Shown here in pieces: positions 44,404-51,114 of a DNA stretch of 64,000 nt (positions are counted from its first letter, which is position 1; the number at the start of each line of letters is the position of its first letter). The notes beneath the pieces are model-generated. The model was not told where the DNA came from and did not search any database. It saw nothing but the letters and a program-made list of their open reading frames with translations. The stretch lies in assembly GCF_000025565.1 (NCBI RefSeq), contig NC_014121.1, forward strand, positions 4,798,216 through 4,862,215. Direction: 5' to 3'. A program made the translations under genes and the position numbers. Source of the DNA: Enterobacter cloacae subsp. cloacae ATCC 13047. Its GTDB lineage: Bacteria > Pseudomonadota > Gammaproteobacteria > Enterobacterales > Enterobacteriaceae.

Positions 44404-47729
<3,326 letters not shown>

Positions 47730-47739
47730 TCACATTGAT

Positions 47740-47778
47740 TGTGAAAATATAATCACAAAATATGCATAAAAAATCACA
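47740..47778 (-). promoter_or_regulatory. Tandem ARG boxes (ArgR operator) upstream of argD
   Basis: Two 18-bp AT-rich imperfect palindromes, tgtgaaaatataatcaca (47740-47757) and tatgcataaaaaatcaca (47761-47778), are separated by exactly 3 bp. That is the usual geometry for one ArgR hexamer. They lie between pabA and argD and should give arginine repression of argD. Confidence 0.82.
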
Positions 47779-47794
47779 GCAAGGCAACAGATAT

Positions 47795-48358
47795 TCAGCG
47801 ATTGAGGAAATTAGCCAGCAGCTGGTGCCCCTGTTCGCTGAGAATACTCTCCGGGTGGAACTGCACCCCTTCGAGATCCCATTCACGATGGCGAATGCCC
47901 ATGATCTCCTGCGTCTCGCTCCAGGCGGTCACCTCAAAGCAGTCGGGCAGCGTCGGCGGGTCAATCACCAGAGAATGGTAGCGCGTGACGGTTAACGGGT
48001 TATTTAACCCACTAAACACGCCCGTGCCGGTGTGGGTAACCGGTGAGGTTTTACCGTGCATCACCCTGGCAGCGCGGACGATGGTGGCGCCAAACACCTG
48101 CCCGATGGCCTGATGGCCAAGGCAGACGCCAAGAATCGGCAGCCTGCCGGCGTAGTGGCGGATCACATCCAGAGAAATACCCGATTCCGATGGGGTACAC
48201 GGCCCCGGCGAGATAACGATTTTCTTCGGGGCCAGCGCGTCAATCTCGGTCAGGCTGATGTCGTCGTTACGGCGGACAACCACCTCTGCACCCAGTTCAC
48301 AAAAATACTGGTAAAGGTTCCAGGTGAAGGAATCGTAGTTATCAATCAGCAGAATCAT
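47795..48358 (-). CDS. pabA: PabA, aminodeoxychorismate synthase glutaminase subunit
   Basis: Supplies ammonia to PabB for p-aminobenzoate and folate synthesis. It is 187 residues, a class I glutamine amidotransferase with nucleophile elbow [11 protein letters not shown] (Cys79) and the His/Glu pair in GVQFHPESI. It lies 30 bases after the fic-like gene and just before the argD operators. Confidence 0.97.
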
Positions 48359-48388
48359 GGCGGCTCCCGAAAAAAATGCCGCCCTATT

Positions 48389-48973
48389 CTACTCAGATTC
48401 CCGCGCTTCGCTCACTACTTTGGCAAAGATAGCGTTCAGGGCGGACAAATCTCCCGTTGCGCCGCTCTGGTTAGCCGCGACCCACTGCTCAGGATCGATA
48501 TCGCGCCAGTCCAGCAGGTAACCCGCATGGATCGCCAGCTGTTCAAAGAAAACGCGCTGCGCAATGCCATTACCGCTCGCAAAAGGATGCAGCATGTTGA
48601 TTTCACAATAGTAATGGCTTATCCGCTCGATAAACTCCTCTTTCTGAAGACCCACTAGGTACCGGTCGCTTTCCAGTGCCGACATCAACTCATTGCCCAT
48701 CTTCTCAATGTATTCGAAATGGCAAAAAGGAATGTCCCCTTTGAAAATATCGTCCGTACGGTATTCACCTGCGCGTTTCATCTCTCTGCGATACAGATGG
48801 CGGTGAATAAGGCACAGATGGGGCAACCCAGGCGCTGAAGGCCCAAGTTCCAGCGTCTCAATCTGGGGATCTGAAGGACCATGACCCTTTTCAAGGAGAC
48901 AACTGGCCTGAAAATTGACGTTACGCTGCTGCTCCCAGAGACGGGATTTTTGCTTATCGGTGAGTTTTTTCAC
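48389..48973 (-). CDS. fic: YhfG-Fic fusion: antitoxin N-terminus joined to Fic AMPylation domain
   Basis: 194-residue ORF. Residues 1 to about 29 match E. coli YhfG (FicA antitoxin): MKKLTDKQKSRLWEQQRN, then FQASCLLEK. From about residue 38 (IETLELGPSAPGLPHL) the sequence is Fic, with the flap GDIPFCHFEYIEK and active helix HPFASGNGIAQR (129-140). In E. coli these are two adjacent genes, yhfG then fic. Here the end of yhfG and about the first 40 codons of fic are gone and the frames are joined. The antitoxin's inhibitory motif [S/T]xxxE[G/N] is present as S24-E28 but followed by Lys. The Fic motif lacks the acidic residue and has Ile for the first Arg. It could be a self-inhibited Fic or a harmless relic. 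Confidence 0.85.
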   Translation of the reverse strand: MKKLTDKQKSRLWEQQRNVNFQASCLLEKGHGPSDPQIETLELGPSAPGLPHLCLIHRHLYRREMKRAGEYRTDDIFKGDIPFCHFEYIEKMGNELMSALESDRYLVGLQKEEFIERISHYYCEINMLHPFASGNGIAQRVFFEQLAIHAGYLLDWRDIDPEQWVAANQSGATGDLSALNAIFAKVVSEARESE

Positions 48974-49047
48974 TTAACGCCTCCCTGAATATGTCCGTTT
49001 GCCAAAGTATAAGCAGCAAAACGCGCTTTCGCAGGGAGGGCTAACAA

Positions 49048-49070
49048 CACGGGCGAGACGCGCCCGTGTC
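49048..49070 (-). terminator. ppiA 3' hairpin
   Basis: acacgggcg / cgcccgtgt arms with a short loop, 9 bases beyond the ppiA stop. It is a likely terminator although the T-run is poor. Confidence 0.65.
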
Positions 49071-49078
49071 AAAGAGGA

Positions 49079-49660
<582 letters not shown>

Positions 49661-49788
49661 TTAACAAAGCGCAGTATAAAAAGCGAATGGCTTGATTCTA
49701 AAGAGCAGTATGAACGGAGACCAGCCTTTTACCTAATTTTACGAAATTGAAACAGTTGTTACCGCGCAAACGATTGGTTATGACGCAA

Positions 49789-49814
49789 TTTTATGTGATC
49801 GCGATCACATAAAA
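49789..49814. promoter_or_regulatory. Perfect 26-bp CRP-type palindrome between ppiA and tsgA
   Basis: The core tgtgatcgcgatcaca (49794-49809) is an ideal CRP site and the symmetry extends through flanking tttta/taaaa. It lies 138 bases from the ppiA start and 115 from the tsgA start. CRP control of ppiA is known in E. coli. Confidence 0.88.
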
Positions 49815-49929
49815 ACCTGCAATGAAGCTCATATTTTCTTTAAAAGATATTAATGGATCACTTTCACGACTAAAATCTGCCCGCTCTCAGCGCCTATCCG
49901 GCGCTTTTCTTTTCCTGAACAGGCCAGAC

Positions 49930-51114
49930 ATGACTAACAGCAATCGTATCAAGCTCACATGGATCAGCTTCTTCTCCTACGCCCTGACCGGCGCGTTGGT
50001 GATCGTCACCGGGATGGTGATGGGAAATATCGCAGACTACTTCCAGCTGCCCGTTTCCAGCATGAGTAACACCTTCACCTTCCTCAACGCGGGGATCCTG
50101 ATCTCCATTTTCCTGAATGCCTGGCTGATGGAAATTGTTCCGCTGAAAACGCAGCTGCGTTTTGGTTTTGTGCTGATGGTCGCCGCCGTGGCGGGTCTGA
50201 TGCTGAGCCACAGCATCGCCCTGTTCTCCGCCGCCATGTTCGTGCTCGGTCTGGTCAGCGGGATCACCATGTCGATTGGTACCTTCCTGATTACCCATAT
50301 GTATGAAGGCCGTCAGCGCGGCGCGCGCCTGCTGTTTACCGACTCCTTCTTCAGCATGGCCGGGATGATTTTCCCGATGGTCGCGGCCGTTCTGCTGGCG
50401 CGCAGCATTGAGTGGTACTGGGTCTACGCCTGTATCGGCCTGGTTTACGTGGCCATCTTCATCCTGACCTTCGGCTGCGAATTCCCGGTTCTGGGTAAAA
50501 AAGCACAGACCACGGCAGAGCCTGTGGCGAAAGAGAAATGGGGTATCGGCGTACTGTTCCTCTCCATTGCCGCACTGTGCTACATCCTGGGTCAGCTGGG
50601 CTTTATCTCCTGGGTGCCGGAATACGCCAAAGGTCTGGGCATGAGCCTGAACGACGCGGGTAAACTGGTGAGCGATTTCTGGATGTCTTACATGTTTGGC
50701 ATGTGGGCGTTTAGCTTCATCCTGCGCTTCTTCGATCTGCAGCGCATCCTGACCGTGCTGGCAGGCCTGGCTACCGTGCTGATGTATCTGTTCATCAACG
50801 GTTCCCCGGACCACATGCCGTGGTTCATTCTGACCCTGGGCTTCTTCTCCAGCGCCATTTATACGTCGATCATCACCCTGGGCTCCCTGCAGACCAAAGT
50901 GGCCTCGCCGAAGCTGGTGAACTTCGTACTGACCTGCGGCACCATCGGCACCATGCTGACCTTTGTGGTGACGGGCCCGATCGTCGCCCACAGCGGTCCG
51001 CTGGCGGCGCTGCACACCGCTAACGGCCTGTACGCCGTGGTGTTCATCATGTGCTTCATCCTGGGCTTTGTAACCCGCCACCGCCAGCATAACGCTGCAG
51101 CGGCGTCGCACTAA
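49930..51114 (+). CDS. tsgA: TsgA, MFS-type inner-membrane transporter
   Basis: 394-residue major-facilitator protein with 12 predicted helices, starting [20 protein letters not shown]. The E. coli/Salmonella homologue is linked to tellurite/selenite growth phenotypes, but the substrate is unknown. The start at 49930 gives the family length; an open frame back to 49822 begins close to the CRP site and is less likely. Confidence 0.93.

What the first reader, a model, noticed from the sequence alone, without database searches (positions are those of the whole stretch)
48389..48973. In-frame yhfG-fic fusion: antitoxin head joined to Fic toxin body
The ORF begins with about 29 residues that match YhfG (FicA), the small antitoxin normally encoded as a separate gene just upstream of fic. 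It continues directly into Fic from about its 40th codon. An in-frame deletion would have turned a two-gene toxin-antitoxin pair into one polypeptide, giving an arrangement like Fic proteins that carry their inhibitory helix in cis. The inhibitory Ser and Glu survive (S24, E28) but the next residue is Lys rather than Gly/Asn. The active helix HPFASGNGIAQR keeps His and GNG but lacks the acidic residue and the first Arg. Either a natural self-inhibited Fic or a decayed relic would be informative.
Basis: partly seen in the sequence, partly recalled or inferred. Interest (0 to 1): 0.72.

Follow-up and report, generated by a model that had tools for sequence, protein, structure and literature searches.

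The report
Antitoxin and Fic toxin in one chain
In most of the core Enterobacter genomes examined, a small antitoxin and its Fic partner, normally made from two genes, have become one well-preserved protein, which suggests that the two parts work as a permanent unit.

Summary
The fusion is real and is not a relic. The ORF at 48973-48389 (minus strand, 194 aa) starts with 28 residues of YhfG/FicA (Pfam E 1.7e-10), then a short linker and the Fic body. In the window's genus 32 of 61 genomes carry this single ORF without a stop, 28 carry separate yhfG and fic, none carries both, one has neither. dN/dS is about 0.11 in head and body. S24 and E28 of the inhibitory helix are kept in 33 of 33 distinct type-1 fusions. 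The 'degenerate' active site mostly predates the fusion. Fusions with other junctions occur in Buttiauxella, Cedecea and further lineages. AlphaFold models of two fusion types align over their heads only with Fic proteins that carry the inhibitory helix N-terminally in cis. Stanger et al. 2016 noted an Enterobacter FicT group with a 'distinctive' N-terminus but, in the text I read, not that it is the antitoxin. Best reading: a selected, permanently locked FicTA complex, a class I to class II-like conversion; its biochemical activity is unknown.

The parts
48389..48973 (-). yhfG-fic fusion gene, 194 codons plus stop, GTG start
48890..48973 (-). Head, residues 1-28: N-terminal half of YhfG/FicA, inhibitory helix (model helix 6-27)
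   Evidence: Pfam YhfG 2-28; NCBIfam 1-28; model
48890..48904 (-). S24-E28 of the inhibitory motif (S C L L E, followed by K29)
   Evidence: S24 and E28 33 of 33, K29 32 of 33 type-1 fusions
48848..48889 (-). Linker, residues 29-42, in place of the YhfG second half, the FicT DPY segment and most of FicT helix 1
   Evidence: dN/dS 0.227; DNA comparison with two-gene sisters
48392..48847 (-). Fic-derived body, residues 43-194
   Evidence: NCBIfam PRK10347 from residue 38; VIA alignment to EcFicT
48725..48769 (-). Flap region, residues 69-83, low model confidence; contains F77 (Ec Y83)
   Evidence: pLDDT below 50; column 83 changed in all six fused lineages counted
48554..48589 (-). Fic motif HPFASGNGIAQR, residues 129-140 (H129, R140 = R2)
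48974..49033 (-). Upstream 60 nt with AGGGAGG ribosome-binding site and a TTATACTT box, nearly the same in the fused and two-gene relatives shown
   Evidence: no sigma-70 consensus match
49079..49651 (-). ppiA, upstream neighbour (name recalled; locus as in PMC5033356)
47795..48358 (-). pabA, downstream neighbour, 30 nt after the fusion's stop (name recalled; locus as in PMC5033356)

Best explanation
A naturally fused FicA-FicT protein. A net 175-nt deletion at the ppiA-yhfG-fic-pabA locus joined the first 28 codons of yhfG to fic, removing the antitoxin's second half and FicT's N-terminal DPY segment and most of its first helix. [Shown] The single chain is kept under purifying selection in most core Enterobacter genomes. 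[Inferred from models and homology] The head folds back as the inhibitory helix beside the active site, with S24 and E28 set to bond R140, so that the two-chain EcFicTA complex is reproduced in class II order. [Inferred] The antitoxin can no longer be degraded or released separately, so the locked complex, not a freed toxin, is the selected working state. The protein should not be an AMPylator, since nearly all its two-gene relatives had already lost the ATP-binding Arg and the acidic residue. Its activity, perhaps on the unidentified substrate proposed for the E. coli-type subfamily, is unknown.
For: Two-domain ORF at high significance. 32 of 61 genus genomes fused and without a stop, 28 two-gene, 0 both, 1 neither. 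dN/dS head 0.113, linker 0.227, body 0.106 over 31 fusions. S24 and E28 33 of 33; R2 33 of 33. Model pLDDT 83.7, pTM 0.83, head helix 6-27. In the VIA table 21 of 50 rows start at model residue 1-3 and are Fic proteins with an N-terminal inhibitory helix (FICD, SoFic, C. elegans FIC-1, C. difficile Fic, BT_2513; class labels partly recalled); the other 29, with the class I chains among them, start at 29-32. The same split for a Buttiauxella fusion: 16 rows from 1-4, 34 from 31-35. EcFicTA is a stable 1:1 complex in which S24 and E28 bond R146 (PMC5033356).
Against: Residue 29 is Lys, not Gly/Asn, and the second type has Asp at 28 (15 of 15), so the lock may be looser than in EcFicTA. Selection on the head is weaker than on the free antitoxin's head (0.113 against 0.039). 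The models show topology only: I had no coordinates, so the E28-R140 contact was not measured, and VIA ranges do not show which residues pair. No expression or activity data.
Confidence: 0.62

Rival explanations
1. A regulated class II-like enzyme: the head inhibits in cis but swings out on a signal (oligomer change, ligand, modification), and the body then acts on its own substrate. The fusion changes how release works, not whether it happens.
For: FICD and other class II proteins are switched without loss of their helix (PMC13327609); weaker head motif (K29, D28) could ease opening; His129 and R140 kept.
Against: No substrate or activity is known for the two-gene relatives (PMC5033356); flap poorly predicted in type 1; nothing here shows a switch.
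Confidence: 0.2
2. The head is now only a structural part: it stabilises a body that lost helix 1 and no longer serves inhibition.
For: Most of FicT helix 1 is gone in type 1; in type 2 the inhibitory Glu is Asp in 15 of 15, in L119 it is Thr; R26 is Leu in 30 of 33 type-1 heads.
Against: S24 and E28 are kept in 33 of 33 type-1 fusions; no class I chain aligns over the head, so the head does not take the place of helix 1.
Confidence: 0.12
3. A decaying relic whose ORF happens to be open, or one kept open only for transcription of pabA.
For: Degenerate Fic motif; the last 12 codons have very low synonymous divergence, 0.10, which may reflect signals for pabA 30 nt downstream.
Against: 32 of 32 without a stop; dN/dS about 0.11 in head and body; motif changes largely older than the fusion.
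Confidence: 0.04

Closest known systems
EcFicTA (Fic-YhfG of E. coli; PDB 5JFF/5JFZ), class I Fic
   Same: Same locus between ppiA and pabA; head is the FicA inhibitory helix; body 56-58% identical over the aligned part; S24, E28 and R2 kept; R1 and acidic residue already lost
   Different: One chain instead of two; FicA second helix, FicT DPY segment and most of helix 1 missing; R0 lost; flap changed
'Subgroup 2' Enterobacter FicT of Stanger et al. 2016 (PMC5033356)
   Same: By description: Enterobacter, five-residue shorter N-terminus of distinctive sequence, no DPY, non-Arg at R0, hydrophobic R1
   Different: In the parts I read it is treated as a FicT with an N-terminal variant; that this N-terminus is the antitoxin is not said
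Class II Fic proteins (FICD/HYPE, SoFic, C. difficile Fic)
   Same: Inhibitory helix N-terminal in the same chain; models align over the head with these
   Different: Derived from class I by fusion; non-canonical Fic motif; most of helix 1 missing; inhibition motif ends E-K
Fic-1-AntF of Pseudomonas bijieensis (PMC13327609; PDB 8WT0)
   Same: There the complex with the antitoxin is an active form (deAMPylase needing AntF Glu28); same S24/E28-R146 contact
   Different: Two chains with a canonical Fic motif; here the acidic and first Arg positions are lost, so deAMPylation is not expected

Membership tests
Class II Fic proteins | Inhibitory helix N-terminal to the Fic fold in the same polypeptide | tested here: met
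   Sequence; models of two fusion types align over the head with chains of this kind and not with class I or III chains among the 50 rows listed for each
Class II Fic proteins | [S/T]xxxE[G/N] inhibition motif | tested here: not met
   S24xxxE28 present, but position 29 is K in 32 of 33 type-1 fusions and E in 1
Class II Fic proteins | Canonical HxFx[D/E]GNGRxxR motif of AMPylating members | tested here: not met
   HPFASGNGIAQR: acidic residue and R1 missing
Class II Fic proteins | Glu of the helix bonds R2 of the Fic motif | not testable with these tools
   No model coordinates available; both residues conserved in type 1
Class I FicTA toxin-antitoxin modules | Separate antitoxin gene directly upstream of ficT | tested here: not met
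   One ORF; no second YhfG match in the own genome or the other 31 fused genomes of the genus
EcFicT-like subfamily (Stanger subgroup 3) | N-terminal DPY segment together with R0 of the Fic motif | tested here: not met
   DPY in 69 of 71 distinct two-gene Fics and 0 of 51 fusions; R0 in 71 of 71 and 2 of 51
EcFicT-like family, locus | Position between ppiA and pabA | tested here: met
   Window order; ppiA found in 161 of 161 fetched loci and pabA in 159 of 161
Stanger subgroup 2 | Enterobacter, shorter distinctive N-terminus, no DPY, R0 not Arg, R1 hydrophobic | tested here: met
   Features met; their alignment (S3 Fig) is not held, so identity of the rows was not checked
Fic-1-AntF-type deAMPylase | Complex of Fic and antitoxin removes AMP from GyrB, needs Glu28 | not testable with these tools
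   Glu28 kept in type 1; acidic residue of the Fic motif lost

The most novel reading that the evidence does not exclude
In the Enterobacteriaceae the YhfG 'antitoxin' is really a subunit: the FicA-FicT complex itself is the functional state, and selection has welded it into one chain more than once (a type in Enterobacter, a type in Buttiauxella, Cedecea and relatives, and several singletons). The weldings turn class I Fic proteins into class II-like ones and are followed by convergent loss of residues tied to FicT's N-terminal lock (Ec Y83 in all six fused lineages counted, R0 in three).
Probability: 0.42. Interest if true: 0.75.

Novelty: new variant of a known kind. Interest (0 to 1): 0.6.

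Why it matters
Fic proteins are sorted by where their inhibitory helix sits, and PMC13327609 (citing a 2016 review that I could not read) holds that the two-gene class I came from class II by fission. Here is the reverse step, caught at one syntenic locus with two-gene sisters for comparison: 32 of 61 genomes of the genus as the tool defines it, 32 of 36 in its core clade. It gives a natural test of what enterobacterial Fic is for. PMC5033356 says that the E. coli protein, the founding member, has no known activity; lineages that cannot release the antitoxin separately keep the protein under selection. That points experiments at the complex rather than at a freed toxin, in line with the Pseudomonas complex that is a deAMPylase. 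It may also explain a published oddity, the Enterobacter FicTs without DPY and R0. NCBIfam's Fic model covers only residues 38-194 here, and named records call such proteins plain Fic.

Tried and rejected
Rejected: chance match of the head (E 1e-10 to 5e-15; same residues start yhfG in two-gene sisters). Rejected: sequencing error (32 species-level genomes). Rejected: relic.

Not decided: one origin or several. On a careful tree of 53 of the 124 rows (fast-evolving fusions L117, L118, L119, P0041, L045, L046 and others left out) type 1 is one side of a branch at 100/99 and type 2 at 94/91, and in 0% of 200 bootstrap trees are the two-gene rows one side of a branch; but the AU test of types 1+2 held together gives p 0.08 and does not reject it. 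On the 124-row quick tree the label needs 5 changes, of which starred branches force 2, and three Cedecea-like two-gene rows fall inside type 2. Different junction lengths and sequences speak for separate events, but later indels could mimic that.

Led nowhere: plain Foldseek search (not completed); Rfam in 46500-50500, no match; sigma-70 and terminator scans, none found. Literature on such a fusion: searches; nothing describing it in the listings and passages I saw, but subscription papers (such as Engel 2012 and the Harms 2016 review, both recalled or cited) are not held.

Full report
What is there. The minus-strand ORF 48973-48389 (194 codons, GTG start, AGGGAGG upstream) lies between ppiA (49079-49651) and pabA (47795-48358), all in one direction; I recognised these neighbours from recall, and PMC5033356 reports the same locus. 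Pfam finds YhfG at residues 2-28 (profile 1-27 of 54, E 1.7e-10) and Fic at 52-146. NCBIfam finds YhfG at 1-28 (E 4.8e-15, 55 bits, below that model's own cut-off of 77, as half the model is missing) and the Fic equivalog at 38-194. Among solved structures the body matches E. coli Fic and the head matches E. coli YhfG, both of entries 5JFF and 5JFZ.

How common. A protein search (120 of 447 hits listed) is headed by 194-residue proteins at 76-89% identity with both Pfam domains; those with names are plain Fic of Enterobacter bugandensis, chengduensis, huaxiensis, soli and hormaechei and of Enterobacteriaceae bacterium 89. A search with the YhfG family agrees: 32 partial matches (profile 1-27) inside the long ORF, 28 full matches in a separate gene, no genome with two. 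Of 161 fetched loci 73 were classed fused and 88 not; ppiA was found in 161 and pabA in 159. One of the 88 (L060, a Citrobacter-named genome) is a fusion interrupted by an in-frame stop. Without duplicates there are 51 fused, 71 two-gene and L060.

Anatomy of the event. In 70 of 71 distinct two-gene loci fic begins 11 nt before the end of yhfG, in another frame; in 1 the overlap is 4 nt. The matched stretch is 757 nt in most listed two-gene loci and 582 nt in type-1 fusions, so 175 nt are missing on balance. Lost are YhfG from residue 29 on and FicT to about residue 40-43, with its DPY segment and most of helix 1. The origin of linker residues 29-42 is unclear.

Relic or gene. Nei-Gojobori dN/dS, pooled over pairs of 31 type-1 fusions, is 0.113 for the head, 0.227 for the linker and 0.106 for the body; in 27 two-gene relatives it is 0.039 for the YhfG head and 0.068 for the Fic body. 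So the fused protein is under purifying selection, somewhat relaxed compared with the pair. For ten Buttiauxella fusions the values are 0.126, 0.102 and 0.089. In 33 distinct type-1 rows 90 of 194 positions do not vary (first residue taken as Met). The upstream 60 nt, with the ribosome-binding site and a TTATACTT box, are nearly the same in the fused and two-gene relatives shown.

The inhibitory helix. S24 and E28 are present in 33 of 33 distinct type-1 fusions; position 29 is K in 32 and E in 1, whereas 67 of 71 two-gene relatives have the full SxxxE[G/N]. In 15 of 15 type-2 fusions S24 is kept and 28 is Asp. The partner Arg of the Fic motif (R2) is kept in 33 of 33, 16 of 16 and 71 of 71. 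Of head positions named as contacts in the Pseudomonas complex (PMC13327609), K9, R17, N20, S24 and E28 are the same in 33 of 33 type-1 heads, while R26 has become Leu in 30 of 33.

The active site. At Ec143 (R1) two-gene relatives have I, L, V or M in 66 of 71 and R in 5; at Ec139 they have I, L, V, A or F in 70 of 71 and E in 1. Stanger et al. already concluded that such proteins are unlikely to AMPylate (PMC5033356). Type 1 has I or V at R1 (33 of 33) and S, R or N at Ec139; type 2 has kept Arg at R1 (16 of 16) with V or I at Ec139, so the two types differ in the active site. What comes with the fusion is at R0 (Arg in 71 of 71 two-gene rows; 0 of 33 in type 1, 0 of 16 in type 2) and in the flap.

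Convergence. I counted six fused lineages: type 1, type 2, L117, L118, L119 and P0041. That all six are independent is assumed, and L117 and L119 evolve fast. Of 97 Fic columns at least 90% conserved in two-gene rows, one has changed in all six: Ec Y83 in the flap (Tyr in 69 of 71 two-gene rows, 0 of 53 fusions). E79 and D69 changed in five. In 20,000 random placements a column changed in all six arose with frequency 0.00095; with four lineages (without L117 and L119) 0.0125. In the E. coli structure the lost DPY segment packs on R0 and on the backbone at residue 79 (PMC5033356), so these changes fit loss of the N-terminal lock. Against a strict rule: L118, L119 and P0041 keep R0. Of two-gene rows without DPY, L065 (DAY) keeps Y83 and L101 (DPD) has lost it; L087 has DPY and Trp at 83.

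History. On the Fic core tree the 33 type-1 rows form one group (99*). On a pabA+ppiA tree 36 genomes form a core group (99*) with 32 fusions and 4 two-gene loci; the other 24 genomes of the genus on that tree are two-gene. Enterobacteriaceae bacterium 89 (L046) carries a type-1 allele although its flanks group with another genus code (97* and 99*), and its C-terminus resembles that genus's Fic by eye, which suggests transfer by recombination. A 392-genome survey, drawn evenly from the family, had matches in 182; 14 genomes outside the genus showed the fusion and all 14 were confirmed as one ORF: five Buttiauxella, three of the genus code that holds Cedecea sulfonylureivorans, three of code g42, and G295, G087, G230. 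All 10 Buttiauxella-named loci are fused. Named database records add Dryocola, a Scandinavium MAG and Erwinia sp. CPCC 100877. Separate origins of types 1 and 2 are likely but not proven.

How it most likely works. Shown: one chain, conserved, antitoxin helix in cis by sequence and by model topology. Inferred: the helix sits in the groove as in EcFicTA. Inferred: separate release of the antitoxin, on which toxin-antitoxin models rest, is impossible unless the chain is cut; hence the complex is the working form. PMC13327609 (parts 1 and 2 of 7, the Discussion and passages seen) shows for a Pseudomonas relative that the complex can be the enzyme, there a deAMPylase needing Glu28; with the acidic residue of the motif gone, the protein here is not expected to do the same chemistry.

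Known or new. Stanger et al. 2016 (PMC5033356; parts 1-4 of 7, Discussion, supplement legends and passages seen) report an Enterobacter subgroup with a distinctive N-terminus, five residues shorter, lacking DPY and R0, and state that a FicA homologue is encoded upstream of all EcFicT in their figure save one. The features match the proteins here; the parts I saw do not identify that N-terminus as FicA. PMC13327609 argues for class II to class I by fission. Passages of PMC5675462, PMC2701414, PMC5664417, PMC5651007 and PMC3667792 do not mention a YhfG-Fic fusion. The fusion direction thus appears undescribed in what I could search.

Noticed in passing
L060 (Citrobacter sp. 18056): A type-2 fusion interrupted by an in-frame stop in the body: a broken copy, described only.
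   Followed up: partly
L119 (G230): Most divergent fusion (182 aa): the catalytic His position is Ser and the inhibitory Glu position is Thr, in an ORF without a stop.
   Followed up: no
L046/L111 (Enterobacteriaceae bacterium 89): Mosaic allele: type-1 fusion with a C-terminus and flanks like another genus, suggesting that the fused allele moved by homologous recombination.
   Followed up: partly
window 48392-48427 and 48932-48973: Synonymous divergence among type-1 fusions is very low in the first 14 codons (0.15) and the last 12 (0.10) against 0.3-0.8 elsewhere, hinting at overlapping signals. Two-gene loci show less of it: 0.38 in the first 14 yhfG codons, 0.11 only in the last 4 fic codons.
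   Followed up: partly
P0063 and P0068: Two E. coli-like predicted proteins join much or all of YhfG to Fic (233 and 252 aa), as if the gene overlap made fusion easy; they may be sequencing errors.
   Followed up: no
G051: One genome of the genus (93% complete) has neither yhfG nor fic; loss or assembly gap not resolved.
   Followed up: no
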